NCBI GenBank assembly: GCA_016790815.1
Contig: JAEUOG010000009.1
Coordinates: 1-59,948, forward strand
Origin: Dechloromonas sp.
GTDB taxonomy: Bacteria; Pseudomonadota; Gammaproteobacteria; Burkholderiales; Rhodocyclaceae
Length of the DNA: 59,948 nt
Direction of reading: 5' to 3'
Part shown: in pieces, positions 301-57,006 of the stretch
How positions within the stretch are numbered: position 1 is the first letter of the stretch
Layout of the letters: each line of letters begins with the position of its first letter
The notes under the pieces: generated by a model
Told to the model about the DNA's origin: nothing
The model's input: the letters and a program-made list of their open reading frames with translations, nothing else
Databases searched by the model: none
Program-made: the position numbers and the translations under genes

Positions 301-2079
301 ATGAGCACCTACATCGCCCCGATTCGCGACATGCAGTTCGTCCTCAACGAAGTCGCCGGCCTCGAAGAGATCTGCGCCCTGCCTGGTAATGAGGAATGTT
401 CCGTCGATCTCGTCGAGTCCATTCTCGACGAAGCGTCCAAGTTCGCTACCGGCGTACTTGACCCGATCAACAGCGTCGGTGACCGCGTCGGTCACGTCTG
501 CAAGGACGGCGTCGTCACCACGGCGCCTGGCTTCAAGGAAGCCTACAAGCTGTTTGCCGAAACCGGCTGGAATTCCATGCCTTTCGATCCGGAATATGGC
601 GGTCAGGGTCTGCCTGCCGTCGTTTCGATGGCGGTCAATGAAATGTGGAAGGGCGCCAACATGGCCTTCGGCTTGTGCCCTATGCTGACTGGTGGCGCCA
701 TCGAAGCCATTGCTCACCACGCTTCCGACGAACTCAAGCAGAAATACCTGCCGAAGATGATCGAAGGCACGTGGACCGGCACGATGAACCTGACCGAGCC
801 GAACGCCGGCTCCGATCTGGCGGCTATCTCCAGCAAGGCCAAGGCCGTTGGCGACGGCAGCTATCTGGTCAGCGGCACCAAGATCTTCATCACCTGGGGC
901 GAGCATGACGTCGCCGAGAACATCATCCACCTCGTGCTGGCCCGCCTGCCGGATGCGCCGCCGGGACTGAAGGGCATCTCGCTCTTCCTCGTGCCGAAAT
1001 TCCTGGTCAATGACGACGGTTCGCTGGGCAAGCGCAATGACCTGATCTGCGCTTCCATCGAACACAAGCTCGGCATCCATGGCAGCCCGACCGCCGTCAT
1101 GTCCTACGGCGAGAACGAAGGCGCCGTCGGCTACCTGATTGGCGACGAGAACAAGGGCATCGGCTACATGTTCACCATGATGAACCACGCCCGCGTCAAC
1201 GTCGGCCTCGAAGGCGTCGGTATCGCCGAGCGCGCCTACCAGCACGCACTGTGGTATGCCCGCGAACGCGTGCAGGGCAAGATCATCGGCGACAAGTCCG
1301 ACGAGAAGAAGACCATCCTGCATCACCCGGATGTCCGCCGCATGCTGATGGACGTCAAGTCGCGCACCGAAGCCATGCGCACGCTGGCCTACTACGCCGC
1401 CGCTAACATCGACCGCGCTCATGCCGGCGATGCCGCTGCGCAATCCCGCGTCGATCTGCTGACCCCGGTCGTCAAGGGCTGGAGCACGGAACAGGGTGTT
1501 GAACTGTCCTCAACCGCATTGCAGGTGTTCGGTGGCGTTGGTTTCGTCGAGGAAACCGGTGCTGCGCAGTATTACCGCGATTCGCGCATCACGACCATCT
1601 ACGAAGGCACGACGGCCATTCAGGCCAACGACCTGGTCGGCCGCAAGTTGGCCCGCGAAAAGGTGCCGGGCGCCGCCATGAAGGCGCTGATTGCTGAAAT
1701 GACGGCCGATGCCGAAGTCTTCGCCGGCAATGCCCAGTTGGGGGGCATCGCTACCCATTTGAAAAATGGCATCAAATCCCTGTCGACCGCAGCAGACTGG
1801 ATCGTTGCCAATTACGAAGCCAATCCGCAGGCCGTCCATGCCGGTTCCGTACCCTTCCTCAAGCTGACCGGCATCGTGGTCGGCGGCTGGCTCATGGCCA
1901 AGTCGGCGGCGATTGCCGTCCGCCACATCGCCGCCGGCAGCAGCGACGATTTCTACAAATCCAAGCTGGCCACCGCCAACTACTTCGCCGCCCACCAGCT
2001 GCCGTTCGCCGCTGCCTACTCGGCCGAAATGACCGGTGGCGCCGACTCGGTCTTCGCCTTGCCGGAAAGCCTGTTCTAA
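301..2079 (+). CDS. Acyl-CoA dehydrogenase, large type with C-terminal domain
   Basis: A 592-residue flavoenzyme that oxidises an acyl-CoA to the 2-enoyl-CoA and hands electrons to ETF. It starts [17 protein letters not shown], typical of the roughly 590-residue bacterial subfamily (DmdC-like) with an N-terminal extension and an extra C-terminal domain. Visible family motifs are [14 protein letters not shown] (FAD/substrate region, about residue 160-175), FITWGEHD and [15 protein letters not shown], in which the Glu near residue 435 is the expected catalytic base. A GGAGAG ribosome site lies just upstream of the ATG. It sits between etfA and the ETF-quinone oxidoreductase, so enzyme and both electron carriers are encoded together. 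Substrate chain length cannot be read from sequence. A paralogue lies at 20723-22492. Confidence 0.95.
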
Positions 2080-2081
2080 CC

Positions 2082-3725
2082 ATGAGCGCGCGCACCGATC
2101 GCGATGCGATGGAATACGATGTCGTGATCATCGGCGGCGGCCCTTCGGGGCTGTCCACGGCGATCCGCATCAAACAGCTGGCCGAGCAGAACGGCAAGGA
2201 AGTGTCGGTTTGCCTACTGGAGAAGGGCTCGGAAATCGGCGCCCACATCCTGTCCGGCGCCGTCATCGAACCGCATGCGCTGGCCGAACTTTTCCCCGAC
2301 TGGCAGGATCGCGGTGCGCCGCTCAACACGCCGGCTGGTGAGGACAAGCTGCTCTATCTGACCGCCACCGGCTCGTACAAGCTGCCGACGCCGCCGCAGA
2401 TGGGCAACCACGGCAACTACATCATCAGCCTGGGCAATCTGGCCCGCTGGCTCGGTGAGCAGGCCGAGGCCCTCGGCGTCGAAATCTATCCCGGTTTCGC
2501 CGCCGCCGAAGTGCTCTATCACGAAGATGGTTCCGTCAAGGGTGTGGCGACTGGCGACCTCGGCATCGGCAAGGATGGCCAGCCCGGCCACAACTTCCAG
2601 CCGGGCATGGAACTGCACGCCAAACAGACCATCTTTGCCGAAGGCTGCCGCGGTTCGCTGACCAAGGAGCTGTTCGCCAAATTCAATCTGCGCGACGGCG
2701 TCGATCCACAAACCTACGGCATCGGCATCAAGGAGCTGTGGGAAATCGATCCGGCCAAGCACCAGCCGGGACTGATCGTGCACACCGTCGGCTGGCCGCT
2801 GCAATCGGACACCTACGGCGGCTCCTTCCTTTATCACCTGGAAAACAACCTCGTCGCCATCGGCATGGTCGTCGGCCTGGATTACAAGAATCCCTGGCTG
2901 TCGCCCTACGAGGAATTCCAGCGCTACAAGACGCACCCGGCGATTCGTGGTTTCTTCGAAGGTGGCCGACGCATTTCCTACGGCGCCCGCGCCCTGTCCG
3001 AGGGCGGCTACCAGTCCGTTCCCAAACTGACCTTCCCGGGCGGCCTGCTCATCGGCGACACCGCCGGCTTCCTCAATGTGCCCAAGATCAAAGGTACGCA
3101 CATGGCGATGAAGTCGGGCATGGTCGCGGCCGAAGCCGTTTTCGAGCATCTCGCCAAGGACAACGCGGGGGCGGAAGCCACCGAGTACGCGGAGCAGATC
3201 AAGAAAAGCTGGCTGTGGGACGAGCTCTATCAGGTGCGCAACATCCGTCCGGCCTTCAAGTGGGGACTGTGGGGCGCGCTGGCCTACGGCGCTATCGACA
3301 CCTACGTCTTCAAGGGCAAGGCGCCGTGGACACTGCATCACCACGACGACCACAGCCAGCTGGGCGACAAGAACAGTCATCCGAAGATTGCCTATCCGAA
3401 ACCGGACGGCCAGCTGACTTTTGACCGTCTTTCATCGGTCTTCCTCTCTGCCACCAACCATGAGGAAAACCAGCAGACGCATTTGCGCCTCAAGAATGAA
3501 AGCGTCGCCATCAGCGTCAACTACGCCAAGTACGGTTCGCCAGAAACGCGTTACTGCCCGGCCGGCGTGTACGAAATCCTTGGCGAGGAGGAAGGCAAGC
3601 CGCGCCTCCAGATCAACGGGCAGAACTGCCTGCACTGCAAGACCTGCGACATCAAGGACCCGACCCAGAACATCAACTGGACGGTACCGGAAGGTGGCGG
3701 TGGGCCGAACTATCCAAATATGTAG
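2082..3725 (+). CDS. Electron transfer flavoprotein-ubiquinone oxidoreductase
   Basis: A 547-residue membrane-associated FAD and 4Fe-4S enzyme that oxidises reduced ETF and reduces ubiquinone. The N-terminus carries the dinucleotide-binding motif [18 protein letters not shown] (about residues 9-26), and the conserved segment [19 protein letters not shown] is present. The C-terminus has the ETF-QO ferredoxin-like cluster region, with RYCPAGVYE followed by [17 protein letters not shown] and the typical ending [10 protein letters not shown]. Length matches bacterial ETF-QO. The ATG is 2 bases after the preceding stop, so translation is probably coupled to the acyl-CoA dehydrogenase. The order etfA, dehydrogenase, ETF-QO forms a complete path from acyl-CoA to the quinone pool. 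Confidence 0.97.
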
Positions 3726-3732
3726 CAAATGA

Positions 3733-3799
3733 CCGGTTTACCGTGGCAACTCCATACCCCAAGGGTACTTCCTGCGGGGCGCGGTCAACCGGAAAAAAA
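3733..3799. repeat. Inverted pair of the dispersed CCGGTTGACCG element
   Basis: Directly after the ETF-QO stop lies CCGGTTTACCGTGGC (3733-3747), one base different from the copy at 38694-38708. It is followed by an opposite-strand copy, GCGCGGTCAACCGG (3779-3792), flanked by an A7 run (T7 when read on the minus strand). The two arms can pair imperfectly across a loop of about 31 bases, so the element could terminate the ETF-QO transcript. Other members are at 10915, 24761, 38680, 44570 and 50046. Confidence 0.6.
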
Positions 3800-9754: not shown

Positions 9755-10897
<1,143 letters not shown>

Positions 10898-10914
10898 GGT
10901 TTGTCTCCTCTATT

Positions 10915-10964
10915 TGTTACGGTCGACCTGATTTTTTGGCTGTTTTTTCCGGTCGACCGTAACA
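10915..10964. repeat. Perfect inverted pair of the dispersed GGTCGACCG element
   Basis: TGTTACGGTCGACC (10915-10928) and GGTCGACCGTAACA (10951-10964) are exact reverse complements, 14 bp each, around a loop containing T6 runs. It lies in the 74-base gap between the acyl-CoA dehydrogenase stop and the racemase start, both on the minus strand. It can form a strong hairpin that may weaken downstream transcription. The right arm with its T runs (TTTTTTCCGGTCGACCG) is the same element seen at 24761, 38680 and 50046. Confidence 0.8.
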
Positions 10965-10971
10965 GGTTGAA

Positions 10972-15370: not shown

Positions 15371-17008
15371 ATGCCCTTGCATGCCATCGACGTTACCCCG
15401 TCGGCCTACGCCTATCCGCTGCTGATCAAGCAACTATTGCATTCTGCCCGGGCTACGGCAGGCGAGCAGGAAGTCGTTTATCGCGACCAGTCCCGCTACA
15501 GCTATCGCCAGTTCTTTGAGCGTATTTCCCGCCTGGCCAATGCGCTGTCCGGGCTCGACGTCGGGCCGGGCAGCACGGTGGCGGTCATGGACTGGGACAG
15601 CCATCGCTATCTGGAAGCCTTCTTCGCCGTGCCGATGATGGGCGCGGTGCTGCAAACGGTGAATGTGCGCCTCTCGCCGGAACAGATCCTGTACACGCTG
15701 AATCATGCCAAGGCCGACATTGTTGCGGTCAACGTCGAATTCATCCCGATTCTGGCGATCATCAAGGATCAGCTCGAGACAGTGAAGAAGTTCATCCTGA
15801 TCACCGACGATGGTTCGACGATGAGCAGCTTCAAGGTGCCCTACGCCGGCGAGTACGAAGCCCTGCTGGCAGCGGCGCCGGCCAGCTACGACTTCCCTGA
15901 TTTCGACGAAAACACCCGCGCCACGACCTTCTACACCACCGGCACCACCGGTCTGCCGAAGGGCGTCTATTTCAGCCACCGCCAACTCGTGCTGCACACG
16001 CTGGGCGTGGCGACGGCGCTTGGCACCTCAGCCGGGCAGGGAAGACTGCATCGCGACGACGTCTATATGCCGATCACGCCGATGTTCCACGTACACGCCT
16101 GGGGCATGCCGTATGTCGCCACCATGCTCGGGCTGAAGCAGGTCTATCCCGGCCGCTACACGCCGGACATGCTGCTGCAGCTGATCGACAAGGAAAGCGT
16201 CACTTTCACGCATTGCGTGCCGACCATCCTGCACATGCTCCTGAGCAACAAGGCCGGCGAGAACGTCGACCTGTCGCGCTGCAAGATGATCATCGGCGGC
16301 GCCGCCTTCCCCAAGGGCTTGGCAGCGGCCGCGCTGGCCCGCGGGATGGATGTCTTCACCGGCTACGGCATGTCGGAAACCTGCCCGATCCTGACCATCG
16401 CCCATGTTCGCGAGGAGTTGCCGGATGCCGACGCCCAGGCAGCCGAACGCATCAAGACCGGCTACACCATTCCGCTCGTCGATCTGCATACGGTCGATGC
16501 CGAGATGCTTGACGTCGAGCGCGACGGCAAGGCGACCGGCGAGATCGTCGTCCGTGCCCCGTGGCTGACCCAGGGCTACCTGCACAATCCGGCGGCGTCG
16601 GAGGAATTGTGGGAAGGCGGCTACCTGCACACCGGCGACATCGGCACCATCGACCCGCGCGGCATGCTGACGGTGACCGACCGGCTGAAGGACGTCATCA
16701 AGACCGGGGGCGAATGGGTCTCCTCGCTCGAACTGGAAAGCGTCATTTCGCAGCACCCGGCGGTCAACGAAGTCGCCGTCATCGGCATCAAGGACGACAA
16801 GTGGGGCGAGCGGCCGCTGGCCATGATCGTCCTGCGCGCCGAGCACACGGCGACAGTCGACGACATCAAGCAGCACGTCCTGCGCTTCGCCGAGGAAGGC
16901 CATATTTCCAAATTTGCCGTGCCCGAGCAGGTTCGTTTTGTCGACAGCCTGGCCCGGACCAGCGTCGGCAAGCTCAACAAGAAGGCCATGCGCGAGCAAC
17001 TGGCCTGA
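15371..17008 (+). CDS. Fatty acid--CoA ligase (AMP-binding)
   Basis: A 545-residue acyl-adenylate-forming enzyme that activates a free fatty acid with ATP and CoA. Motifs: the P-loop-like TFYTTGTTGLPKGVYFSH (near residue 185), GYGMSETCP, YLHTGDIGTIDPRGMLTVTD, DRLKDVIKTGGEWVSSLELE and the C-terminal Lys in TSVGKLNKKAMRE. Length and motifs fit medium/long-chain acyl-CoA ligases. It has an AAGGAG ribosome site and starts a plus-strand operon with hydroxyacyl-CoA dehydrogenase/hydratase, thiolase and acyl-CoA dehydrogenase, so ligase plus these enzymes make a full beta-oxidation set. Confidence 0.93.
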   Translation: MPLHAIDVTPSAYAYPLLIKQLLHSARATAGEQEVVYRDQSRYSYRQFFERISRLANALSGLDVGPGSTVAVMDWDSHRYLEAFFAVPMMGAVLQTVNVRLSPEQILYTLNHAKADIVAVNVEFIPILAIIKDQLETVKKFILITDDGSTMSSFKVPYAGEYEALLAAAPASYDFPDFDENTRATTFYTTGTTGLPKGVYFSHRQLVLHTLGVATALGTSAGQGRLHRDDVYMPITPMFHVHAWGMPYVATMLGLKQVYPGRYTPDMLLQLIDKESVTFTHCVPTILHMLLSNKAGENVDLSRCKMIIGGAAFPKGLAAAALARGMDVFTGYGMSETCPILTIAHVREELPDADAQAAERIKTGYTIPLVDLHTVDAEMLDVERDGKATGEIVVRAPWLTQGYLHNPAASEELWEGGYLHTGDIGTIDPRGMLTVTDRLKDVIKTGGEWVSSLELESVISQHPAVNEVAVIGIKDDKWGERPLAMIVLRAEHTATVDDIKQHVLRFAEEGHISKFAVPEQVRFVDSLARTSVGKLNKKAMREQLA

Positions 17009-17032: not shown

Positions 17033-19429
17033 ATGAAACTAGTGGTCAATAAAGCGGCCGTTCTCGGTGCTGGCGTCATGGGGGCGCAGATTGCCGCCCA
17101 CCTCGCCAACGCCAACGTGCCGGTGGTGCTGTTCGACCTGCCGGCCAAGGAGGGCGACAAGAACGGCGTCGTCAAGAAGGCGCTCGATGGCCTCAAGCGC
17201 CTGCAACCGTCGCCGCTGGTGACGCGCGACAAGCTGCAATACATCGACGCCGCCAACTACGAGGAACATCTGGAACTGCTTTCCGGCTGCGATCTGGTCA
17301 TCGAAGCCATTGCCGAGCGGATGGACTGGAAGAACGATCTGTATTCCAGAATTGCCCCGTTTTTGCCGTCGACCGCAGTCATCGCCTCCAACACCTCCGG
17401 CCTGTCGATCAATGCACTGGCCGACGGCTTGCCGGAGGCGCTGCGCCCGAACTTCTGCGGCATCCACTTCTTCAACCCGCCGCGCTACATGCCGCTGGTC
17501 GAAATCATCGCCACCCTCGGCACCGATCCGGCCACGCTTGATGGTCTCGAAAGCTGGCTGACCTCGCGCCTCGGCAAGGGCGTTGTCCGTGCCCTTGATA
17601 CGCCGAACTTCGTGGCCAATCGCATCGGCGTCTTCTCGATTCTGGCGGTCATGCATCACACCACGGCCTTCGGACTCGGTCTGGATACCGTCGACGGCCT
17701 GACCGGCCCGAAGATCGGGCGCCCGAAAAGCGCCACCTACCGGACCGGCGATGTCGTTGGCCTCGACACCCTGGCCCATGTCGTCAAGACCATGCGCGAC
17801 ACCCTGCCGGGCGATCCCTGGCATGGCTACTTCAATGTTCCGGCCTGGCTCGACGGCCTGATCGCCAAGGGCGCGCTCGGCCAGAAAACCAAGGGCGGCA
17901 TCTTCTGCAAGCAGGGCAAGGAGATCCAGGTCTTCGACCCAGCGACCGGCAAATATCGCCAGAGTAACGACGGCCTGGCCGTTGAAGTAGACGCCATGCT
18001 CAAGATGAGCGATCCGGCGGCCCGCCTGAGTGCGCTGCGTACCTCCAATCATCCGCAGGCCAAGTTCCTGTGGGCGATCTTCCGCGATCTGTTCCACTAC
18101 TGTGCGGTGCAACTCGAAAATGTTGCCGACAACGCCCGCGATGTTGATTTCGCGCTGCGCTGGGGCTTCGGCTGGGCGCAGGGGCCGTTCGAACTCTGGC
18201 AGGCCGCCGGCTGGGCCGAAACGGCGCAGGCGATTGTCGCCGACATCGCCGCCGGCAAGGCCATGAGCAGCGTGCCGCTGCCGGCCTGGGTGATGACCAA
18301 GGGGCGCAGTGGTGTGCATGGCTCGGCCGGTGCGTGGTCGGCCAGCCGTCAAGGCAATGTGCCGCGCTCGACCCTGCCGGTCTATGGCCGCCAGCTCTTC
18401 CCGGAACTGCTGTTGGGTGAAACCCTGGCCCAACCGGAAAAGAGCGGCAAAACCCTGTTCGAAAACGACGGTGTCCGCTTGTGGACGCTGCCGGCGGTCG
18501 ACGCCGGGATTGGCATCATTTCCTTCAAGTCCAAAATGCACGCCATCGGTGACGAAGTGCTCGAAGGCGTGCTGGCTGCCCTCAAGCAGGCGGCCGGCAG
18601 TCTGGATGGCCTGGTCATTTGGCACGATGCGCCATTTGCCGTCGGCGCCAATCTCAAACAGATCAGCGATGCCTGTGTTGCCGGTGATTTCGACCGGCTC
18701 GAACAGACGGTAGCCAAATTCCAGCAAGCGACGATGGCGGTCAAGTACGCCCCAATACCTGTGGTGGCTGCCGTGCAGGGCATGGCGCTGGGTGGCGGTT
18801 GCGAGTTCGCCATGCACGCCGCCAAGCGCGTGCTGGCACTGGAAAGCTATCTCGGTCTGGTCGAAGTCGGCGTCGGTCTGATCCCGGCCGGCGGCGGCTG
18901 CAAGGAGCTGGCGCTGCGCGCGGCCCGCTGGGCGGCACAATCCGGCGCTTCGGGCGAAGTGCTCGGCAACCTGTCGCCAACCTTCATGACCGTGGCCATG
19001 GGCAAGATGAGCAAGAGCGCCCATGAAGCAATCGGTCTCGGTTTCGGCAAGACTGGCGACACGATCCTGTTCAATGCCCGCGAGCTGCTCTTCGTCGCCC
19101 TCAAGGAAGCCCGCCTGCTGGCCGATGCCGGTTATGTCCCGCCGGTCCCGGCGCGTGGCGTGCCAGTCGCAGGTCGGGCCGGTATTGCCAGCATGGAAAT
19201 GACGCTGGTGAACATGCGCGAAGGCGGCATGATCTCGGCCCACGACTATCGCGTTTCCCGTGCCGTGGCCGTTGCCCTGTGTGGCGGCGAAATTGAATAC
19301 GGCAGCCTGGTCGACGAAGCTTGGCTGCTGGCCGTCGAACGCCGGCAATTCCTCGAACTCCTCAAAACCCCGGAAACCCAGGCGCGCATCAAGCACATGC
19401 TGGACACCGGCAAACCCCTGAGGAACTAG
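17033..19429 (+). CDS. 3-hydroxyacyl-CoA dehydrogenase / enoyl-CoA hydratase fusion
   Basis: A 798-residue bifunctional beta-oxidation enzyme. The order is dehydrogenase first: NAD-binding AAVLGAGVMGAQIAAHLANA at about residues 7-26, then HFFNPPRYMPLVEII and the 3HCDH C-terminal domains. A crotonase-type hydratase domain follows near residues 480-720 (VQGMALGGGCEFAMHA and VEVGVGLIPAGGGC). This order matches FadN-type proteins rather than E. coli FadB, in which the hydratase comes first. RBS CAGGAGA lies before the ATG. It works with the thiolase at 19513 and the acyl-CoA dehydrogenase at 20723. Confidence 0.94.
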   Translation: MKLVVNKAAVLGAGVMGAQIAAHLANANVPVVLFDLPAKEGDKNGVVKKALDGLKRLQPSPLVTRDKLQYIDAANYEEHLELLSGCDLVIEAIAERMDWKNDLYSRIAPFLPSTAVIASNTSGLSINALADGLPEALRPNFCGIHFFNPPRYMPLVEIIATLGTDPATLDGLESWLTSRLGKGVVRALDTPNFVANRIGVFSILAVMHHTTAFGLGLDTVDGLTGPKIGRPKSATYRTGDVVGLDTLAHVVKTMRDTLPGDPWHGYFNVPAWLDGLIAKGALGQKTKGGIFCKQGKEIQVFDPATGKYRQSNDGLAVEVDAMLKMSDPAARLSALRTSNHPQAKFLWAIFRDLFHYCAVQLENVADNARDVDFALRWGFGWAQGPFELWQAAGWAETAQAIVADIAAGKAMSSVPLPAWVMTKGRSGVHGSAGAWSASRQGNVPRSTLPVYGRQLFPELLLGETLAQPEKSGKTLFENDGVRLWTLPAVDAGIGIISFKSKMHAIGDEVLEGVLAALKQAAGSLDGLVIWHDAPFAVGANLKQISDACVAGDFDRLEQTVAKFQQATMAVKYAPIPVVAAVQGMALGGGCEFAMHAAKRVLALESYLGLVEVGVGLIPAGGGCKELALRAARWAAQSGASGEVLGNLSPTFMTVAMGKMSKSAHEAIGLGFGKTGDTILFNARELLFVALKEARLLADAGYVPPVPARGVPVAGRAGIASMEMTLVNMREGGMISAHDYRVSRAVAVALCGGEIEYGSLVDEAWLLAVERRQFLELLKTPETQARIKHMLDTGKPLRN

Positions 19430-24740: not shown

Positions 24741-24760
24741 TCAGAGCCGAAAAATTTCAA

Positions 24761-24789: not shown

Positions 24790-24805
24790 GCGCCTAACTT
24801 ATTGT

Positions 24806-36983: not shown

Positions 36984-38624
36984 ATGCTCGAAAAATGCTC
37001 GTACTTTTCTGGTGTCCCGGGGCCCGTCGTCATAATCGTGATGGACGGCTACGGCCTGCCGAAGACCGACGTCGGCAGCGCCATCGCTGCCGCCAAAAAG
37101 CCGACGCTCGACTGCCTCTTCGCCGATTACCCCAATATTCGCCTTCGTGCCCACGGCACGGCCGTCGGCATGCCGTCCGACGACGATATGGGTAATTCGG
37201 AAGTCGGTCACAACGCCATCGGCGCTGGCCAGGTCTATAGCCAGGGTGCCTCGCTGGTCTCGAATGCAATTGCCTCCGGCGCTATCTGGCAGGGTGAGGC
37301 ATGGCAGCAGATTGTTGCCGGCGCCAAGGCCGGTCGCGGCGTTGTGCATCTGATCGGCCTGTTCTCTGACGGCAATGTGCATAGCCACATCGATCACCTC
37401 AAGGCCATGGTCGTCCAGGCCAAGGCCGAGGGCCTCAAGACCGTGCGCATCCACGCCCTGCTCGACGGCCGGGACGTGCCCGAAACCAGTGCACTCGAAT
37501 ACGTCGTGCCGTTTGAGGCCTTTCTCGCCGAGATCAGCAACGATGGTTTTGATGCACGCATCGCCTCGGGCGGCGGCCGCCAGTACATCACCATGGATCG
37601 CTACGACGCCAACTGGGCGATGGTCGAAAAGGGCTGGAAGACGCACGTGCTCGGCCTCGGCACGCAGTTCCCGAACGCCACTGCTGCGGTCAACGGCCTG
37701 CGCGAGCAGAATCCGGGCACCATCGACCAGGATTTGCCGGAGTTCGTCATCGCCGACAACGGCAAGGCCATCGGCACCATCGAGGACGGCGATTCGGTTG
37801 TCTTCTTCAACTTCCGTGGCGACCGCGCCATCGAAATTACGCGCGCCTTCGAGGAAGCTGGTTTCGACAAGTTTGACCGCGTCCGTGCGCCGAAGGTGAC
37901 CTACGCCGGCATGCTGCAATACGACGGCGACCTCAAGCTGCCGGCCCGTTTCCTCGTCGCGCCACCGGCGATCAAGGACACCACGGGCGAATGGTTTGCC
38001 AAATCGGGCATTGCCCAGTTCGCCTGCTCGGAAACGCAGAAATTCGGCCACGTGACCTATTTCTGGAATGGCAACCGCTCCGGCAAGTTCGAGGGTGAAA
38101 GCTGGCAGGAAGTCCCGAGCGACGTCGTGCCTTTCGAGCAGCGCCCGTGGATGAAGGCCGCCGAAATCGCAGACGCAATGATCGCCGCCATCCAGTCCGG
38201 CCGGTACCGGACGCTACGTTGCAATTTTGCCAACGGCGACATGGTCGGCCATACCGGCAACTTCTATGCCGCGACGCTGGCTGTCGAAGCGGTCGACCTT
38301 TCGCTCGCCCGTGTCCTGCAGGCCGTTGATGCGGCCGGCGGCGTGGCACTGATTACGGCCGACCACGGCAACGCCGACGAAATGTTCGAGCTGGACAAGA
38401 AGACCAAGCAGCCGGCGTTGAACAAGGATGGTTCGTTCAAGGCCAAGACAGCGCACACGCTGAACCCCGTGCCGCTTATCCTTTACGACAACGTGAGCGG
38501 CGGCAAGCTGGGCCTGAAGCAGACTGAAAAGGCTGGCTTGTCGAATATCGCCGCCACCGTCGCCAACCTGCTCGGGCTGGAAAAGCATGCGGCCTGGGAC
38601 GAGAGTGTGCTCGACATCAAATAA
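36984..38624 (+). CDS. gpmI: 2,3-bisphosphoglycerate-independent phosphoglycerate mutase
   Basis: A 546-residue metalloenzyme that interconverts 3- and 2-phosphoglycerate in glycolysis and gluconeogenesis. Motifs: metal site VIIVMDGYGL, phosphoserine loop DMGNSEVGHNAIGAG, GLFSDGNVHSHIDHL, ALLDGRDVPETSALEY, FNFRGDRAIEITRAF, NGDMVGHTGN and TADHGNADEMFE. It is slightly longer than typical GpmI (about 515). ATG 36984 is used because the frame upstream only offers TTG 36954; the ribosome site is weak. Under growth on acetate or fatty acids it would act in the gluconeogenic direction. A strong terminator follows. Confidence 0.95.
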   Translation: MLEKCSYFSGVPGPVVIIVMDGYGLPKTDVGSAIAAAKKPTLDCLFADYPNIRLRAHGTAVGMPSDDDMGNSEVGHNAIGAGQVYSQGASLVSNAIASGAIWQGEAWQQIVAGAKAGRGVVHLIGLFSDGNVHSHIDHLKAMVVQAKAEGLKTVRIHALLDGRDVPETSALEYVVPFEAFLAEISNDGFDARIASGGGRQYITMDRYDANWAMVEKGWKTHVLGLGTQFPNATAAVNGLREQNPGTIDQDLPEFVIADNGKAIGTIEDGDSVVFFNFRGDRAIEITRAFEEAGFDKFDRVRAPKVTYAGMLQYDGDLKLPARFLVAPPAIKDTTGEWFAKSGIAQFACSETQKFGHVTYFWNGNRSGKFEGESWQEVPSDVVPFEQRPWMKAAEIADAMIAAIQSGRYRTLRCNFANGDMVGHTGNFYAATLAVEAVDLSLARVLQAVDAAGGVALITADHGNADEMFELDKKTKQPALNKDGSFKAKTAHTLNPVPLILYDNVSGGKLGLKQTEKAGLSNIAATVANLLGLEKHAAWDESVLDIK

Positions 38625-38642: not shown

Positions 38643-38680
38643 ATGGGCGTCCTGCCGTGCGGCAGACGCCCATCTCATTT
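38643..38680 (+). terminator. Rho-independent terminator after gpmI
   Basis: ATGGGCGTC and CTGCCG pair with CGGCAG and ACGCCCAT around a TG loop (38643-38673), followed by CTCATTTTTT. A long stable stem with a T run. Confidence 0.88.
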
Positions 38681-38707
38681 TTTGCTGCTTTTTCCGGTTG
38701 ACCGTGG
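38680..38707 (+). repeat. Dispersed T-tract/TTGACCG element
   Basis: T tract, GCTGC, T5, CCGG and TTGACCGTGG (38698-38707), directly after the gpmI terminator and before a convergent gene. It shares CCGGTTGACCG with the copies at 3779 (minus) and 50046. Confidence 0.65.
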
Positions 38708-38730
38708 CAAACCGCGCTCCAGTCAGGGAA

Positions 38731-43494: not shown

Positions 43495-44565
43495 TCAGGC
43501 GGATTTACCTGCCCACTTACGTCGGTAGTGTACTGGCGCCATACCCGTCCATTCGACAAACGCACGATAAAAGGCAGAGGTGTCGGCATAGCCGAGGTCG
43601 GCGGCGACCTGCGAGATGGCGTCACGGGTCTTGGTCAGGCGGGCCAGCGCCATGTCGCGGCGCAGGGCATCCTTGATGGCTCGGAAGCTGGAGCCTTCTT
43701 CTTCGAGGCGGCGATGGATGGTGCGTGGGGAGAGGTGGAGGCGGTCGGCGATATCGTCCAGGCTCTGGGTGGCGGGCAGGGCTGCGCGAAGCAGGTCGCG
43801 GACACGGATGACCATTTCACGGTCGCGACGATAGAGTGTCGTGATCTTGCCCGGGGCGCCTTCAAGAAAGGTGGCCAGCGCCGCCTCGTCGCGACGGATC
43901 GGCAGGTCGAGCAGGTTGGCGTTGAAACTGGCGACCAGCGTGCCAGTGCCGCCCGGGACAGTCGGTGCGAAGCGTGAGTCTTCGGTGAAGATGAGCGGGT
44001 AGTCGGCCGAGTGGGCAGGCCTGCGGTAGGGGAAGATCACGTGGTCGAGCGCGATGCCGCGCCCGGCCAGCCAGCACGAGAGGCCATGCAGTAGGCGCAA
44101 CAGCCATTCAAAGGCGAAGACGCGGCCGGGGTCGTCCGGGTCATCGGCCAGCTTGCGGGTTTCGGCAATGACCAGTTCGGCCCGGCCGTGCGAACGTCGT
44201 ACGCTGATGGCAAGGTCGGGCAGCACGATGTGCAGGAAGCGGCTGGCCCGGCTCAGTGCCTCGGCCAGCGTGGGGGCGCTGAGGCAGCCGCGGCACAGGA
44301 ATTCGAAACTGCCGGTGCGCATGGGCTGGGAAAATAGTCCAAAACCTTCATCGTCCAGTTCGCGGTTGAGGCAGTTATAGAGCGCGGCGTAGCGGTCGAT
44401 GGGGATTCGGCTGGCGATGTCTGCAATATCAATATCGGTGGCAGCCAGCAGCTTGCCCGGATCAATTTGGCGACGCGCCAGTCCGGCCAGCATCCCGGTA
44501 ACAAATCCCATGGCAACAGTGGCTTGCGTACGGCTTGGGGAACCTTGGTTTGTGCGATGCAGCAT
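43495..44565 (-). CDS. AraC-family transcriptional regulator (Arabinose_bd + HTH_18)
   Basis: 356 residues. The N-terminal Arabinose_bd-type domain ([40 protein letters not shown]) precedes a C-terminal AraC HTH ([53 protein letters not shown]). Same architecture as the regulator at 14235. It is divergent from icmF with a 141-base gap, so it is the likely regulator of that mutase. A second in-frame ATG lies 18 codons in, giving a shorter start that may be the real one. Confidence 0.9.
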
Positions 44566-44569
44566 TTTC

Positions 44570-44594
44570 GGCCATTTTTCGACGTCGACCGCAG
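44570..44594 (+). repeat. Dispersed T-tract/TCGACCGCAG element
   Basis: CCATTTTTCGACG followed by TCGACCGCAG (44585-44594), just upstream of the AraC-type gene in the divergent region before icmF. Same core as nine other exact copies in the window. Confidence 0.6.
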
Positions 44595-44706
44595 TACTCT
44601 ATCACCTTGGCGGAATTTGCACGATCTTCGTCATTCGCAACAATGGCGGCGGGGTAAAAGCGGCCTAACATGGGCGCCTTTCCCTCTTTTCGATAAGGCT
44701 GGCGTC

Positions 44707-47700
44707 ATGACCGATCTATCCGTTGCGAAGAAGCTGTCTCCCTATAAGCCCAAGCACAAGGTCCGTTTCGTGACCGCTGCGTCGCTGTTCGACGGCCACG
44801 ATGCCTCCATCAACATCATGCGCCGCATTCTGCAATCGACCGGCTCTGAAGTGATCCACCTCGGCCACAACCGCTCGGTGCAGGAAATCGTCAACGCCGC
44901 GTTGCAGGAAGATGTGCAGGGCATTTGCATCACGTCGTATCAGGGCGGCCATGTCGAGTTCTTCAAGTACATGATCGATCTGCTCAAGGCCAACGGCGGT
45001 GAAAACATCAAGGTCTTCGGTGGCGGCGGCGGGGTGATCGTGCCGTCCGAAATCAAGGAGCTGCATGCTTACGGCGTGACCCGCATCTACGCCCCGGAAG
45101 ACGGCGTGCACATGGGGCTGCAGGGCATGATCAACGAAGTGGTGCAGAACGCCGACTTCGACGTCGCCGACGAGGGCGTGCCGACTGTCGAGCAGGCGCT
45201 GGCCGGTTTGCAGGCGGGCGACAAGCGACTGCTGGCTCGACTGATTACGCTGCTTGAGAACGGTGAGGCGCCGGCACTCAAGGAGCCGCTGCTCAAGGCC
45301 GCGGCCGCGCTCGACACCCCGGTTCTCGGGATTACCGGTACCGGCGGTGCCGGCAAGTCGTCGCTGACCGACGAAATTGTCCGTCGCTTCCGCCTCGATC
45401 AGGGCGATACGGTCAAGATCGGCCTGATCTCGATCGACCCCTCGCGCAAGCGTACCGGCGGCGCGCTGCTCGGCGACCGCATCCGCATGAACGCCATCGA
45501 ACATCCGAACATCTTCATGCGTTCGCTGGCCACCCGCGATACGGGTTCCGAGATTTCCGTCGCGCTGCCCGAGGTCATTGCCGCCTGCAAGCTGGCCGGT
45601 TTTGATCTGGTGGTCGTTGAAACCTCCGGCATCGGCCAGGGCAATGCGGCCATCGTGCCTTTTGTCGATCTGTCGCTGTACGTGATGACGCCAGAATTCG
45701 GTGCCGCTTCGCAGCTGGAGAAAATCGACATGCTCGACTTCGCAGATTTCGTGGCGATCAACAAGTTCGACCGCAAGGGCGCCGAGGATGCGCTGCGCGA
45801 CGTGCGCAAGCAGTATCAGCGCAATCGTGAAGCCTTCTCGACGCCGACCGACGAAATGCCGGTGTTCGGCACACAGGCTGCCCGTTTCAACGATGACGGC
45901 GTCACCGCCTTGTATCAGGCGCTGGTCCCCGCATTGGCGGAGAAGGGGCTGAAGTTGAAGCCGGGTCAGTTGCCCGTCGTCAGCGTCAAGCAGTCCTCGA
46001 CCCAGCGCGCCATCGTGCCGGCGCAGCGCGTCCGTTATCTGGCGGAAATCGCCGACACTGTGCGTGGCTATCACGCTCATACCGCCGAACAGGTGAAGAT
46101 CGCCCGCGAACGCCAGTCGCTGAGAATTTCAAAGGGCATTTTTGCCGGTTGCGACAAGTCGACCGCAGATTTCGACGAATTGCAGGCGTTCAAGGACAGC
46201 CAGCAGGATCCCAAGGCCAAGAAGTTGCTCGACATGTGGCCGGCGACCGTTGAAGCGTATTCTGGCGACGAATACGTCGTCAAAATCCGCGACAAGGAAA
46301 TCCGCACCAAGCTGGTATCCGAGTCGCTGTCCGGCACCAAGATCCGGAAGGTCATCCTGCCGAAAATCGGCGATGACGGCGAGATCCTGCGCTTCCTGAT
46401 GCGCGAGAATGTCCCCGGCTCTTTCCCCTATACGGCTGGCGTTTTCGCTTTCAAGCGCGAGGGCGAGGACCCGACCCGCATGTTCGCCGGCGAGGGCGAT
46501 GCCTTCCGAACCAATCGCCGCTTCAAGCGCGTTTCCGAAGGCATGCCGGCGCACCGCCTCTCCACCGCCTTCGATTCGGTCACACTGTATGGTTGCGACC
46601 CCGACGAGCGTCCGGACATCTACGGCAAGATCGGCAACTCCGGTGTGTCGATCGCCACGCTCGACGACCTGAAAGTACTCTACGACGGCTTCGATCTGCT
46701 CTGTCCGACCACCTCGGTTTCGATGACGATCAACGGCCCGGCACCGATCATCCTCGCCTGCTTCTTCAATACCGCCATTGATCAGCAGATGGCCAAGTTC
46801 GAAAAAGAAAACGGCCGCCAGCCGACCGAGGACGAAGCCCAGAAGATCCGCGAGTGGGTACTCAAGTCCGTGCGCGGCACCGTGCAGGCCGACATCCTGA
46901 AAGAAGACCAGGGGCAGAATACCTGCATCTTCTCAACTGAATTCGCGCTGAAGATGATGGGCGACATCCAGGAATTCTTCGTCCATAACCAGGTGCAGAA
47001 TTTCTACTCGGTGTCGATCTCCGGGTATCACATCGCCGAAGCCGGTGCCAATCCGATTTCCCAGCTGGCCTTCACGCTGTCCAACGGCTTCACCTACGTC
47101 GAGAGCTACCTGGCGCGCGGCATGCACATCGATGATTTCGCGCCCAACCTGTCGTTCTTCTTCTCGAACGGCATGGACCCGGAATATTCGGTGATCGGAC
47201 GCGTTGCCCGCCGCATCTGGGCGCTGGCGATGAAGAACAAATATGGCGCCAACGAGCGCAGCCAGAAGCTCAAGTACCATATTCAGACAAGTGGGCGCTC
47301 ACTGCACGCGCAGGAGATGGATTTCAACGACATCCGCACGACGCTGCAGGCACTGATTGCCATCTACGACAACTGCAACTCGCTGCACACCAACGCGTAC
47401 GACGAAGCGATCACGACGCCGACCGAAGAGTCCGTGCGCCGCGCCATGGCTATCCAGCTCATTATTAACCGCGAGTGGGGCGTCGCCAAGAACGAAAACC
47501 CGAACCAGGGTGCTTTCGTCATCGACGAACTGACCGATCTGGTCGAGGAGGCCGTGCTCAAGGAATTCGAAGCTATCGCCTCGCGCGGCGGCGTGCTCGG
47601 CGCCATGGAAACCGGCTACCAGCGCGGCAAGATCCAGGAAGAGTCAATGTACTACGAGCACAAGAAGCACGACGGCTCCTACCCGATCATCGGCGTCAAT

Positions 47701-48714: not shown

Positions 48715-50040
48715 ATGAACCATCAAGAGCTTGCCAACAGCCTGAAGCTGAATCGCATTACCCGTCGCCAGATGCTCTGGTTGCTGGGCGCCAGCGCCCT
48801 GTCGGGTTGTGCCAGTTCGCCCGTCGGCGGAGGCTCGATTCTGGTCGGGATGAGCGAGGATGAGGAGAAGGCTGTCGACAAGCAGGTTTCGCCGCAGCAG
48901 TTTTCGCAGGACCTTGGCCCTGTACAGGATGGGGCTGTCAACCAGTATCTGACCGATGTCGGTCGTCGAATCGACGCCAAAACACATCGGCCTCAAATGC
49001 CGTATTCCTATCGCGTGCTGAATGCCAACTACGTCAATGCCTACACTTTTCCGGGTGGGGCGATGGGTGTGACGCGCGGCATTCTGGTCGATCTTGACGA
49101 TGAAGCGGAGCTGGCTGCGCTGCTTGGCCACGAACTGGGGCATGTCAATGCCCGTCATGCCGCGCAGCGGCAAGGGCAGGCGATGGTGGCGCAGGTGGCT
49201 GTGACTGGTGCCAGCATCATCGGGCAGGCAACTGGCTATGGTGGCCTGGTCGATATTGGCAGCCAGTTGGGTGCCAGCGTTCTGCTGTCCAGCTATTCGC
49301 GCGAAAACGAGCGCGAGGCGGATGCGCTCGGGCAGGAATACATGGTGCGAGCGGGCTATCCGGCGAAGGGCATGGTCGGGCTGCAACAGTTGCTCGTCGA
49401 TCAGCAGAAGGAGTCGCCGGGAATGTTGCAAACCATGTTCTCGACGCACCCGATGAGCGTCGAGCGTCGTGATACCGCGAAGCAACTGGCCGAGAGCAAA
49501 TACGCGGCGAGCAATACGCGTGACGTTGGCCGCGAACGTTTCATGGACAACACGGCGTCACTGCGCCGGATCAAGCCGACCATCGATGCCTGCCAGAAAG
49601 GCGAAGTGGCAATGGCGGGCAAGGAGTACGGCAAGGCCGAAGAGCGCTTCCGCACTGCGTTGAAGGCGACGCCACGCGATTACGCAGCCAACGTGTTGAT
49701 GGCGAAATGCCTCTCCGAGCAGGACAAGGATGCGCAGGCGATGGAATACGCCCAGGCAGCGACCAAGATCTACCCGCAGGAAGCCCAGGCGCACAAGTTG
49801 ACGGGCGTGCTGGCGCTGGGCGAGAAGGATCCCGGCAAAGCCTTCGAGCACCTTGATCGTTACGATCGCCTGTTACCGGGTGACGCCGGCGTGACTTTCC
49901 TGAAGGGCGTTTCGCTCGAAGGCATGGGCAAGCGCCCGGAGGCAGCCAAACAATATGCGGCCTACCTGAAACGCAGCCAGCAGGGCAAGGCGGCAGAGTA
50001 TTCGATGAGCCGCCTGCAGAGTTGGGGCTATCTGAAGTGA
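48715..50040 (+). CDS. M48 family metalloprotease with TPR repeats (BepA-like lipoprotein)
   Basis: 441 residues. A twin-Arg-containing signal with lipobox (TRRQMLWLLGASALSGC) suggests a lipoprotein exported to the periplasm. The M48 catalytic domain has the zinc motif HELGH (near residue 138) in LLGHELGHVNARHAAQRQ and the third ligand region YSRENEREADALGQEYM. TPR-like helices follow from about residue 290 (KAEERFRTALKATPRDYAAN and two later repeats). This is the arrangement of BepA/YfgC, which checks outer-membrane protein assembly. GGAG precedes ATG 48715. Substrates here are unknown. Confidence 0.9.
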   Translation: MNHQELANSLKLNRITRRQMLWLLGASALSGCASSPVGGGSILVGMSEDEEKAVDKQVSPQQFSQDLGPVQDGAVNQYLTDVGRRIDAKTHRPQMPYSYRVLNANYVNAYTFPGGAMGVTRGILVDLDDEAELAALLGHELGHVNARHAAQRQGQAMVAQVAVTGASIIGQATGYGGLVDIGSQLGASVLLSSYSRENEREADALGQEYMVRAGYPAKGMVGLQQLLVDQQKESPGMLQTMFSTHPMSVERRDTAKQLAESKYAASNTRDVGRERFMDNTASLRRIKPTIDACQKGEVAMAGKEYGKAEERFRTALKATPRDYAANVLMAKCLSEQDKDAQAMEYAQAATKIYPQEAQAHKLTGVLALGEKDPGKAFEHLDRYDRLLPGDAGVTFLKGVSLEGMGKRPEAAKQYAAYLKRSQQGKAAEYSMSRLQSWGYLK

Positions 50041-50045
50041 ATTCG

Positions 50046-50075
50046 ATTTTGGCTGTTTTTTCCGGTTGACCGCAG
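50046..50075 (+). repeat. Dispersed T-tract/TTGACCGCAG element
   Basis: ATTTTGGCTG, T6, CCGG and TTGACCGCAG (50066-50075), right after the protease stop. With its two T tracts one helical turn apart and intact core it is the best full-length example in the window. Confidence 0.75.
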
Positions 50076-50191
50076 CAGGCTCGCTCTCTTCCGGAACGAA
50101 TGGTGTCGGATTGTTTTACAGTTTGGCTCCAGGCCAATTTGTCACGCTGTTTAAACCCTTATTATTCAATTTGTTAGTATTTATTTTGTGG

Positions 50192-54862: not shown

Positions 54863-55038
54863 TTTATTTCCTGGATTGTCTGCCGGACGACAATTATAAG
54901 GCTGGCGTCCGCATACACTGCGATGCATCAGTGAGAGATTGTTCGTCTGCTGCAAGGTCTGTGTAAGCGAGCGATTCCCACAATGATTCAAACGAACGTT
55001 AGACCGCGAACAATGAGTCGCGGCGGAGGAGACGAGAA

Positions 55039-57006
55039 ATGCCCAAGCAGGCGAATTTCGCCGCGGTGGACGGTTTGCATACCTTCCCGCGCTTGTTGTT
55101 TCATCATGCTCAAGTGCGCCCCAGTGAGCCGGCCATGCGCGAGAAGCATCTCGGCATCTGGCAGACCTGGAGCTGGCTGGATGTGGCCGAGCGGGTGCGT
55201 GCGCTGGCCTGTGGTCTTGCTTCGCTTGGCTTCAAGCGCGGCGACAACCTGGCCATCATCGGCGACAACCGGCCGCATCTTTACATGATGATGAGCGCCG
55301 CCCAGTGTCTGGGTGGGGTGCCGGTGCCGCTTTACCAGGACGCTGTGGCCAACGAGATGCTGTTCGTGTTGCAGGACGCGGGGATCAGGTTCGCCTTGGT
55401 CGAGGATCAGGAGCAGGTCGACAAGCTGCTCGAGATCAAGGATCAGCTGCCGTCGCTCGAGCACATCGCCTATGACGACTCGCGCGGCATGCGTCACTAC
55501 ACCCAGCCTTTCCTGCACGACGTGCATGAGCTGATGGAGATGGGGCGCATTCACGATCGCAATCACTCGGATTTCCTGAATGAAGAGGTTGAAAAAGGGC
55601 ACTTCGACGATGTCTCGGTGATGCTCTATACCTCCGGTACGACAGGCAAGCCCAAGGGCGTCTGCCAGACCCACGCTGCGTTCATTGCCGCGGCGCAGGG
55701 TGGGGCGCAGGTCGACAATCTGGGTGCCGATGGCGACATCCTGTCCTACCTGCCGATGGCCTGGGTTGGCGATCACCTCTTTTCCTTTGCGCAGTCGCTG
55801 GTTTGTGGTTTCACCATCAACTGCCCGGAATCGGGCGAAACGGTGATGACTGACCTGCGCGAGATCGGCCCGACCAACTACTTTGCGCCGCCACGGGTGT
55901 TCGAGAGCCTGCTGACTTCGGTGCAGATCCGCATGGAAGATGCAGGGCAGTTCAAACAAAAAATGTTTCACCATTTCATGGCGGTGGCCAAGCGTTGCGG
56001 CGGTTCCATTTTGGACGGAAAAACCGTGTCGACCGCAGATCGCTTCCAGTACTGGCTCGGTAACTTGCTGATCTACGGCCCGCTGCGCAACGTGCTCGGC
56101 ATGAGCCGGATCAAGGTCGCCTACACTGCCGGCGCCGCGATCGGCCCCGAGTTGTTCAGCTTCTACCGTTCCATCGGCATCAATCTCAAGCAGCTTTACG
56201 GCCAGACCGAAACCTGCGCCTACGTTTGTCTGCAGCCGGATGGTCAGGTCAAGGCCGACACCGTAGGTGCGCCGGCGCCCGGCGTCGAGATCAAGATCGC
56301 CGACAATGGCGAGGTGCTGGTCAAGGGCGCCATGCTGCTCAAGGAGTACTACAAGCGGCCGGATGCAACCGCTGAGTCGATCAATGCCGAAGGGTATTTC
56401 ATGACAGGCGATGCTGGCTTCCTCGACGAAGATGGCCACCTCAAGATTATCGACCGCGCCAAGGATGTCGGCAAACTGTCCAACGGCGCGATGTTTGCCC
56501 CGAACTACATCGAGAACAAGCTGAAGTTCTTCCCGTTCGTGAAAGAGGCCGTCTGCTTTGGGCACGATCGCGACATGGTCTGCGCCTTCATCAATATCGA
56601 CGTTGGCGCCGCAGGCAACTGGGCCGAGCGCCGCAACATCGCCTATTCGGGCTACACCGATCTGGCCGGCAAGGCGCAGGTAATCGAGATGATCAAGACC
56701 TGCATCGAGGAGGTTAACGCTTCGCTTGCCCACGACAGCATGGTGGCCGATTCCCAGATTCACCGTTTCCTTGTCCTGCACAAGGAACTGGACCCTGACG
56801 ACGACGAGCTGACCCGTACCCGCAAGGTGCGCCGCAATTTCATCGCAGAGAAATACAAGGTACTGATCGACGCGCTGTACGAAGGCAAGGGCAACCAGTA
56901 CATCGAAACCGAGGTCAAGTTCGAGGATGGGCGTCGCGGCAAGGTGTCCGCCGACCTCAAAATCGTCGATGTCAAGACCTTCCCGATCGCCAAAAAAGCG
57001 GCCTGA
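55039..57006 (+). CDS. Long-chain acyl-CoA synthetase-like AMP-binding protein
   Basis: A 655-residue adenylate-forming ligase: YTSGTTGKPKGVCQTHAAF (near residue 196), LSYLPMAWVGDHLFSF, YGQTETCAYVCLQP, YFMTGDAGFLDEDGHLKIID and DVGKLSNGAMFAPNYIENKL. This larger subfamily (about 650 residues) activates long-chain or aromatic/alicyclic acids and is often found with branched-chain amino acid type ABC transporters, as here (57021-59948). ATG 55039 has GGAGGAGACGAGAA upstream. The arrangement implies that the transporter imports an acid that this enzyme converts to its CoA ester. Substrate unknown. Confidence 0.9.
   Translation: MPKQANFAAVDGLHTFPRLLFHHAQVRPSEPAMREKHLGIWQTWSWLDVAERVRALACGLASLGFKRGDNLAIIGDNRPHLYMMMSAAQCLGGVPVPLYQDAVANEMLFVLQDAGIRFALVEDQEQVDKLLEIKDQLPSLEHIAYDDSRGMRHYTQPFLHDVHELMEMGRIHDRNHSDFLNEEVEKGHFDDVSVMLYTSGTTGKPKGVCQTHAAFIAAAQGGAQVDNLGADGDILSYLPMAWVGDHLFSFAQSLVCGFTINCPESGETVMTDLREIGPTNYFAPPRVFESLLTSVQIRMEDAGQFKQKMFHHFMAVAKRCGGSILDGKTVSTADRFQYWLGNLLIYGPLRNVLGMSRIKVAYTAGAAIGPELFSFYRSIGINLKQLYGQTETCAYVCLQPDGQVKADTVGAPAPGVEIKIADNGEVLVKGAMLLKEYYKRPDATAESINAEGYFMTGDAGFLDEDGHLKIIDRAKDVGKLSNGAMFAPNYIENKLKFFPFVKEAVCFGHDRDMVCAFINIDVGAAGNWAERRNIAYSGYTDLAGKAQVIEMIKTCIEEVNASLAHDSMVADSQIHRFLVLHKELDPDDDELTRTRKVRRNFIAEKYKVLIDALYEGKGNQYIETEVKFEDGRRGKVSADLKIVDVKTFPIAKKAA

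What the first reader, a model, noticed from the sequence alone, without database searches (positions are those of the whole stretch)
1783..56038. Dispersed TYGACCGCAG motif resembling a DNA uptake sequence
The 10-mer TYGACCGCAG occurs exactly on the plus strand at 1783, 17369, 22271, 24780, 25668, 44585, 46159, 50066 and 56029, and once on the minus strand at 37693-37684. A hand estimate from base composition gives about 0.2 per strand, so ten copies is a large excess. Five copies lie in plus-strand genes of unrelated families, always in the same reading phase (TCG/TTG-ACC-GCA, Ser/Leu-Thr-Ala), using the less common GCA Ala codon. Homology between genes therefore does not explain them. The best intergenic copies read, on the opposite strand, CTGCGGTCAA then CCGG, A6, spacer, A4. 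That is a GCGGT core followed by two A-tracts one helical turn apart, the architecture of Pasteurellaceae uptake signal sequences (core AAGTGCGGT). Uptake sequences are established only in Pasteurellaceae and Neisseriaceae. The 9:1 strand bias is unlike an uptake sequence and leaves a polar motif (KOPS- or Chi-like) as the main alternative.
Basis: partly seen in the sequence, partly recalled or inferred. Interest (0 to 1): 0.75.

Follow-up and report, generated by a model that had tools for sequence, protein, structure and literature searches.

The report
DNA uptake signals in Azonexus/Dechloromonas
A group of environmental bacteria appears to mark its own DNA with hundreds of copies of a short signal, much like the self-DNA tags that Haemophilus uses when it takes up DNA, in a family for which I found no report of such tags.

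Summary
TYGACCGCAG occurs 10 times in the window (0.45 expected) and 390 times in the 2.54-Mb genome against 12 for the reversed control, 194:196 between strands.

The motif is TGCT-GCGGTCRAC plus two A/T tracts about one helical turn apart. It tops the over-represented 10-mers in all seven motif-bearing samples; three motif-poor samples from the same genus have no such motif. With core plus first tract as the pattern, 36 of 76 genus genomes have at least 40 copies, 11 have 9-39 and 29 have at most 8; sampled genomes outside the genus have 0-5.

Copies are enriched between genes, favour certain reading phases, are spaced more evenly than random, and come in species dialects. An rpoB tree suggests ancestral presence and repeated loss.

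An uptake signal for natural transformation is the best explanation; KOPS/Chi, repeat-element and codon-bias readings fail. Uptake and receptor are untested. A 2025 paper calls Neisseriaceae and Pasteurellaceae the only families known to do this; this would be a third, with a plan close to Pasteurellaceae signals.

The parts
1753..1796 (-). uptake-signal-like site; 10-mer at 1783-1792 (+), phase 0 inside acyl-CoA dehydrogenase gene 301-2079
   Evidence: gene context by my gene caller; PWM score 36.1; Pfam
17339..17382 (-). site; 10-mer at 17369-17378, inside 3-hydroxyacyl-CoA dehydrogenase/enoyl-CoA hydratase gene 17033-19429
   Evidence: (35.3)
22271..22280 (+). 10-mer match without the following C or the A/T tracts (acyl-CoA dehydrogenase gene 20723-22492); probably chance
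   Evidence: not among the window sites above threshold
24750..24793 (-). strong intergenic site with both tracts, between convergent genes 24171-24740 (+) and 24806-25825 (-)
   Evidence: 40.5
25638..25681 (-). site inside AAA ATPase gene 24806-25825 (-); here the GCGGT strand is the gene's sense strand
   Evidence: (25.7)
37680..37723 (+). site without clear tracts, reads CTGCGGTCAAC in phosphoglycerate mutase gene 37041-38624
   Evidence: (18.0)
44555..44598 (-). intergenic site with both tracts, between divergent genes 43495-44493 (-) and 44707-47970 (+) as called by my gene caller
   Evidence: 32.6
46129..46172 (-). site inside methylmalonyl-CoA-mutase-type gene 44707-47970
   Evidence: (22.3)
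50036..50079 (-). highest-scoring site in the window, just past the stop of M48 peptidase gene 48715-50040; nine of 14 motif-bearing relatives carry own-dialect or variant versions near the same place
   Evidence: (44.5)
55999..56042 (-). site inside AMP-binding enzyme gene 55039-57006
   Evidence: (27.3)
10913..10966 (.). inverted pair of variant-core sites (ACGGTCGAC), intergenic by my gene caller (10841-10971); folds as a hairpin of -25.8 kcal/mol
   Evidence: 25.1 and 35.8; fold (z -5.75)
15719..15762 (+). site TTGCGGTCAAC inside gene 15371-17008
   Evidence: 30.1
38668..38711 (-). intergenic variant-core site (CCACGGTCAAC) with both tracts
   Evidence: 40.4
28303..28346 (-). weak candidate site inside gene 25887-30266
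   Evidence: 16.9
3707..3750 (-). weak candidate site (ACGGTAAAC), intergenic
   Evidence: 20.4

Best explanation
The motif is a self-specific DNA uptake signal sequence for natural transformation in the GTDB genus that holds Azonexus and Dechloromonas. Its consensus in this genome is TGCT-[G/A]CGGTC[A/G]AC, then about 4 bases, an A/T tract, about 6 bases, and a second A/T tract. Inferred mechanism: a surface or pilus-tip receptor (probably a type IV minor pilin) recognises the RCGGTCRAC core on extracellular double-stranded DNA; the two A/T tracts, one helical turn apart, help the DNA bend or kink so that pilus retraction can pull it through the secretin; ComEC and DprA complete transformation. 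Because marked fragments are taken up and recombined preferentially, the motif accumulates by point mutation plus biased recombination wherever sequence tolerates it. Lineages whose receptor specificity changes shift to another dialect, and lineages that lose specificity or competence let the sites decay. Shown: genome-wide over-representation, extended architecture, strand balance, intergenic and phase preference, even spacing, genus restriction in the samples searched, dialects, patchy occurrence, presence of ComEC, DprA and minor-pilin genes. Inferred: recognition, uptake, receptor, drive, and the direction of change (loss).
For: 390 copies vs 12 reversed control, strand-balanced. Logo with core plus two tracts and no conservation beyond, so not copies of an element. 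Single-base variants of the inner core are rare except G-to-A giving ACGGT. Weight matrix: 157 sites in 456 kb of this genome (the sequence it was trained on) and 0 in that sequence reversed; at the same threshold it finds 0 in 200 kb each of two motif-poor relatives of similar GC content. Motif tops all 10-mers under a 4th-order Markov model in 7 of 7 motif-bearing samples, and none of 3 motif-poor samples has a comparable motif. Intergenic 39 of 157 sites vs 10.1% of bases, p=1e-7; genic sites mainly in one sense phase (43 of 54) or one antisense phase (43 of 63); intergenic sites score higher, p=3e-4; gaps more even than random (CV 0.61, KS p=0.003, 57 gaps). Core plus first tract at 0-5 copies in all 194 sampled genomes of 67 other genera of the family and all 247 other sampled genomes of the order sample. 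Dialects: TGCT-, GTT-, YA- and C-GCGGTCRAC. Orthologous intergenic site: 9 of 14 motif-bearing relatives carry it (4 single sites and 3 inverted pairs with exact core, 2 with the ACGGTCAAC core), 0 of 6 motif-poor ones. ComEC in 56 of 60 genomes, PF16732 (ComP-type) pilins in 70 of 76, GspH-type in 69 of 76, DprA in 75 of 76.
Against: No experiment shows uptake preference or transformability in this genus; my two searches for natural competence or transformability with Dechloromonas found no such report. The receptor was not found: ComEC, DprA and both pilin families occur in motif-bearing and motif-poor genomes alike, and minor-pilin C-termini do not discriminate. At least 14 motif-poor genomes have an intact-looking ComEC frame, so motif loss is not simply loss of ComEC. 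At the orthologous site 5 of 14 motif-bearing relatives lack the motif. In motif-poor G497 one of the top ten 10-mers contains GCGGTC (GATGCGGTCG, 13 vs 1.85 expected), though its 13 copies lack the tracts. The bare 10-mer is moderately raised in two genomes outside the genus (G059 96 vs 16, G052 75 vs 25), which have only 1 tract-bearing copy each. Inverted pairs within 30 bases, common in known uptake-sequence genomes, are rare here (wider pairs such as the window's were not counted). Core-to-tract spacing differs from Pasteurellaceae USS. Self/non-self depletion in phages and plasmids was not tested.
Confidence: 0.8

Rival explanations
1. A polar chromosome motif (FtsK KOPS or RecBCD Chi) that points along the replichores.
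For: Short, frequent, 9:1 strand bias inside the window.
Against: 194:196 genome-wide; neighbouring copies on contigs not significantly co-oriented, 47 same vs 37 different, P=0.17; two A/T tracts, dialects and patchy occurrence within a genus are unlike Chi or KOPS as I know them. Replichore position itself was not examined.
Confidence: 0.03
2. Binding site of a chromosome-organising or global regulatory DNA-binding protein whose specificity drifts between species.
For: A-tracts phased at one turn bend DNA (general knowledge); intergenic enrichment; hundreds of sites.
Against: 117 of 157 sites lie inside genes, and spacing is even; many congeners lack the motif, and three sampled ones have no replacement motif; restriction to one genus in the samples searched. 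No candidate protein; none was searched for.
Confidence: 0.11
3. A dispersed repetitive element (REP/MITE-like) or transposon end.
For: Hundreds of dispersed copies; inverted pairs at a few places.
Against: Conservation ends about 25 bp from the core and the tracts are degenerate; copies sit in preferred reading phases inside genes; dialects differ between species at an orthologous site.
Confidence: 0.02
4. Codon or amino-acid bias, or a restriction-modification target.
For: Phase preference; the bare core occurs in conserved rpoB codons of motif-poor genomes too; GTCGAC inside one variant is palindromic.
Against: Motif-poor relatives of similar GC content have far lower counts; a quarter of sites are intergenic and score higher; a modification site would not need two distant A/T tracts (inference).
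Confidence: 0.02

Closest known systems
Pasteurellaceae uptake signal sequence (USS), Hin type AAGTGCGGT and Apl type ACAAGCGGT
   Same: GCGGT in the core (GCGG is the part crucial for uptake in H. influenzae, PMC7811141 passage); two AT-rich segments 3' of it, roughly one turn apart; hundreds of copies without orientation bias; subclade dialects that change the bases 5' of GCGGT (PMC1626085 passages). The published Apl construct shares GCGGTCAA with our core.
   Different: Found in Betaproteobacteria; core extends 3' (GCGGTCRAC) rather than ending at GCGGT; by my reading tract centres lie about +11 and +21.5 from the T of GCGGT, against about +6/+17 (Hin) and +4.5/+15.5 (Apl) in the constructs quoted in PMC1626085; about 0.34 matrix sites per kb rather than close to 1; function untested.
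Neisseriaceae DNA uptake sequence (DUS, GCCGTCTGAA)
   Same: Betaproteobacterial; genome-wide without orientation bias; dialects among relatives; ComP-family pilins present here too.
   Different: Unrelated sequence; DUS has no flanking AT motifs (PMC1626085 passage); hairpin pairs in terminators are frequent in Neisseria (PMC1852404 passages) and close pairs are rare here.

Membership tests
DNA uptake sequences (general kind) | Hundreds of copies, far above expectation | tested here: met
   390 vs 12 control; top 10-mer
DNA uptake sequences (general kind) | No orientation bias genome-wide | tested here: met
   194:196; no significant runs
DNA uptake sequences (general kind) | Present in genes and between genes, phase-limited in genes | tested here: met
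DNA uptake sequences (general kind) | Dialects among related species | tested here: met
DNA uptake sequences (general kind) | Host has competence genes | tested here: met
   ComEC, DprA and minor pilins found in this genome and nearly all of the genus; ComEA, PilQ and PilT were not searched; transformability unknown
DNA uptake sequences (general kind) | Inverted pairs serving as terminators (common, not universal) | tested here: inconclusive
   rare within 30 bases in the samples; one hairpin pair in the window and three at the orthologous site
DNA uptake sequences (general kind) | Preferential uptake of DNA bearing the motif | not testable with these tools
   needs an uptake assay
DNA uptake sequences (general kind) | Cognate receptor protein | tested here: inconclusive
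   pilin families present in motif-bearing and motif-poor genomes; FimT C-termini not discriminating in 20 of 30 loci compared
Pasteurellaceae USS | GCGGT core with two AT segments 3', about one turn apart | tested here: met
   against the description in PMC1626085; distance from core to tracts differs
Pasteurellaceae USS | Core AAGTGCGGT or ACAAGCGGT | tested here: not met
   TGCTGCGGTCRAC and other dialects
Pasteurellaceae USS | Found in Pasteurellaceae | tested here: not met
   same genus as D. denitrificans ATCC BAA-841
Neisseriaceae DUS | Core of the GCCGTCTGAA type | tested here: not met
KOPS/Chi polar motifs | Copies co-oriented along a replichore | tested here: not met
   balance and runs within contigs; position relative to ori/ter not tested

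The most novel reading that the evidence does not exclude
Azonexus/Dechloromonas belongs to a third bacterial family with self-specific DNA uptake, and its signal shares the GCGGT-plus-two-AT-tract plan with Pasteurellaceae because both are read by related minor pilins (or because the uptake machine imposes that plan), with receptor specificity drifting into dialects and being lost repeatedly within one environmental genus.
Probability: 0.35. Interest if true: 0.92.

Novelty: new variant of a known kind. Interest (0 to 1): 0.83.

Why it matters
Uptake signals are held to be known only in Pasteurellaceae and Neisseriaceae (PMC12616744, passage). A third case in environmental Betaproteobacteria, with sister species that keep, change or lack the signal, would give a natural experiment for open questions: what receptor reads the signal, why two AT tracts recur, whether the plan is convergent or ancient, and what selection or molecular drive maintains uptake signals. 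Cultured motif-bearing species exist, so the idea is directly testable.

Tried and rejected
Rejected: polar motif, repeat element, codon bias. Receptor by presence/absence: PF16732 and PF12019 pilins are nearly universal in the genus. The C-terminal GRxR motif of FimT (recalled, from no call) appeared in 2 of 20 compared sequences, both from genomes with few copies (my extraction failed for 10 of 30 loci).

ComEC integrity: five low-motif genomes have a disrupted comEC (G017, G028, G034, G043, G088). Among genomes with a match, low (at most 8 copies) 5 of 20 disrupted against high (at least 40) 0 of 24, p=0.014, or 1 of 25 if G007 counts as broken, p=0.074. Left out of that count: G005 (match at a contig edge), G018 and G086 (fragmented), the 4 genomes with no match (G008, G020, G032, G037), and the 8 intermediate genomes, of which G002 (split) and G004 (538-aa frame) also look disrupted. 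Only the five and G007 were read; the others are judged by frame length, and G035 (554-aa frame) was counted as undisrupted. Suggestive only. Two of the seven reference frames (G083, G041) appear to be wrong-strand frames and their rows are ignored.

rpoB loci were uninformative for turnover. One search's tree had four wrong reading frames and was redone. In notes (context) I recorded a contig-length match between this genome and Dechloromonas sp. UBA6271; sequence comparison did not bear it out, so I do not name the window's species. The 5 IMG/VR contigs were not pursued. Paper searches gave no report of uptake sequences in this group in their listings.
Full report
Observation. The genome holding the window (2.54 Mb in 81 contigs, 76% complete) has 194 forward and 196 reverse copies against 5 and 7 for the reversed pattern. 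The 9:1 bias in the window is local, and neighbouring copies on contigs are not significantly co-oriented (P=0.17, 99 listed copies).

What the motif is. From 76 sites in 456 kb of the genome (window plus 20 stretches), the logo read on the other strand is TGCTGCGGTCRAC, about four free bases, an A/T tract centred about +11 from the T of GCGGT, about six free bases, and a second A/T tract centred about +21.5; conservation then fades. Single-base changes of the inner core are nearly absent apart from G-to-A. An iterated weight matrix finds 157 sites in these 456 kb (its own training sequence) and none in the reversed sequence, about 0.34 per kb; the cores GCGGTCRAC (93) and ACGGTCRAC (47) dominate. 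Nine of the window's ten 10-mers reach the threshold; 22271 does not; six further sites appear, two of them weak.

Distribution in the genome. With my own simple gene caller (437 genes, 89.9% coding), 39 of 157 sites are intergenic (p=1e-7 against 10.1% of bases), 117 genic and 1 at an edge; intergenic sites score higher (p=3e-4). Genic sites favour one sense phase (43 of 54) and one antisense phase (43 of 63, with 17 in a second). Gaps on the first 79-80 kb of two contigs are more even than random (57 gaps, CV 0.61, KS p=0.003 with the mean estimated from the data). One inverted pair in the window folds to -25.8 kcal/mol, z -5.75, but inverted pairs within 30 bases are rare in the sampled genomes. 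In the window the genic sites lie in genes of several Pfam families, two of the ten 10-mers in acyl-CoA dehydrogenases at non-corresponding positions.

Distribution among genomes. In one search, TYGACCGCAG was strongly raised in some same-genus genomes and near background in others; two genomes of other families were moderately raised (G059 96 vs 16, G052 75 vs 25) but have one tract-bearing copy each. A looser pattern showed that several apparent negatives carry the same core with other 5' bases. Dialects seen: TGCT- (this genome; TGCT/TCCT- in D. denitrificans ATCC BAA-841, whose identity with G091 rests on a full 31-mer match to L035), GTT- (G019, G089), YA- with the first tract shifted by one (G038), and a mixed C/T- form with a weak first tract (G029). 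With GCGGTCRACN5AAA, 36 of 76 genus genomes have at least 40 copies, 11 have 9-39 and 29 have at most 8. In a family sample (199 genomes, 68 genera) and an order sample (250 genomes), the sampled genomes outside this genus have 0-5.

Controls. [quoted passage not shown] the motif-poor samples G497, G043 and G034 have top z of 7.8, 7.3 and 5.1 with unrelated words (only 60 kb each for G042 and G034). In G497 one of the top ten words, GATGCGGTCG (13 vs 1.85), contains GCGGTC, but its copies lack the tracts. This genome's matrix finds nothing above threshold 14 in 200 kb each of G497 and G043; a dialect of their own was looked for only through the word counts.

History. An rpoB nucleotide tree of 27 genomes (18 with at least 40 copies, 9 with fewer), midpoint-rooted without an outgroup, reconstructs presence at the root with seven changes; several nodes are weakly supported, so ancestral presence and the number of losses are provisional. 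Just downstream of the M48 peptidase gene (window 50066), 14 motif-bearing relatives were compared: seven carry an exact GCGGTCRAC core (G033, G040, G020, G503 as single sites; G007, G082, G029 as inverted pairs), two an ACGGTCAAC core (G042, G507), five none (G089, G038, G498, G009, G023); none of six motif-poor relatives carries either core. By hand, if 9 of 20 genomes have the site, the chance that none of the six is among them is 0.012. The locus was chosen because this genome has a strong site there.

Machinery. ComEC is found in 56 of 60 genus genomes, DprA in 75 of 76, PF16732 (ComP-type) pilins in 70 of 76, GspH/FimT-type pilins in 69 of 76. Five motif-poor genomes have a disrupted comEC; the association with low motif count is suggestive (p=0.014 or 0.074 depending on one genome), and at least 14 of 20 motif-poor genomes have an intact-looking frame. 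No receptor was identified.

Interpretation. The sequence-level hallmarks of an uptake signal tested here are met, except that close inverted pairs are rare; uptake is not testable here and the receptor search was inconclusive. In Pasteurellaceae the USS is AAGTGCGGT or ACAAGCGGT with two AT segments 3' of it, roughly one helical turn apart (PMC1626085, passages), and GCGG is the crucial part for uptake (PMC7811141, passages). The present motif shares GCGGT and the two 3' tracts, but the core runs on as CRAC and the tracts sit about half a turn further out (my own reading of the two published constructs). The Apl construct reads GCGGTCAA at the same place. Whether this is convergence or common ancestry is open; PMC12616744 (passages) itself raises deep common roots for DUS and USS receptors.

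Novelty. [quoted passage not shown] My full-text searches pairing uptake-sequence terms with Rhodocyclales, Azonexus, Dechloromonas and Rhodocyclaceae returned no paper; Dechloromonas with natural competence returned one whose abstract is about another subject, and with naturally transformable none. Broader searches listed no paper on this group; one search listed 25 of 62. The library holds open-licence papers only and no preprints, so an unseen report is possible.

Noticed in passing
window 10913-10966: Inverted pair of variant-core sites forming a strong hairpin between two minus-strand genes; terminator-like placement but no clear U-run.
   Followed up: partly
window 50267-51196 and 51468-54128: Protein ending in a PEP-CTERM-like sorting tail (recalled signature; no Pfam hit at 1e-10), followed by a long TPR protein; may be an exosortase-linked pair.
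   Followed up: no
window 25887-30266 and 33667-36636: Two very large proteins that look by eye like CheB-CheR-PAS sensory fusions, the first ending in a GGDEF/EAL-like part. Not searched.
   Followed up: no
G002:C33:109525-144033 and G043:C1:2218607-2251879: comEC appears split by roughly 33 kb in two genomes of the genus, suggesting an element inserted in the same gene.
   Followed up: partly
IMG/VR loci L141-L145: Five viral contigs carry the extended motif; they may be phages or proviruses of these hosts, host DNA, or chance.
   Followed up: no
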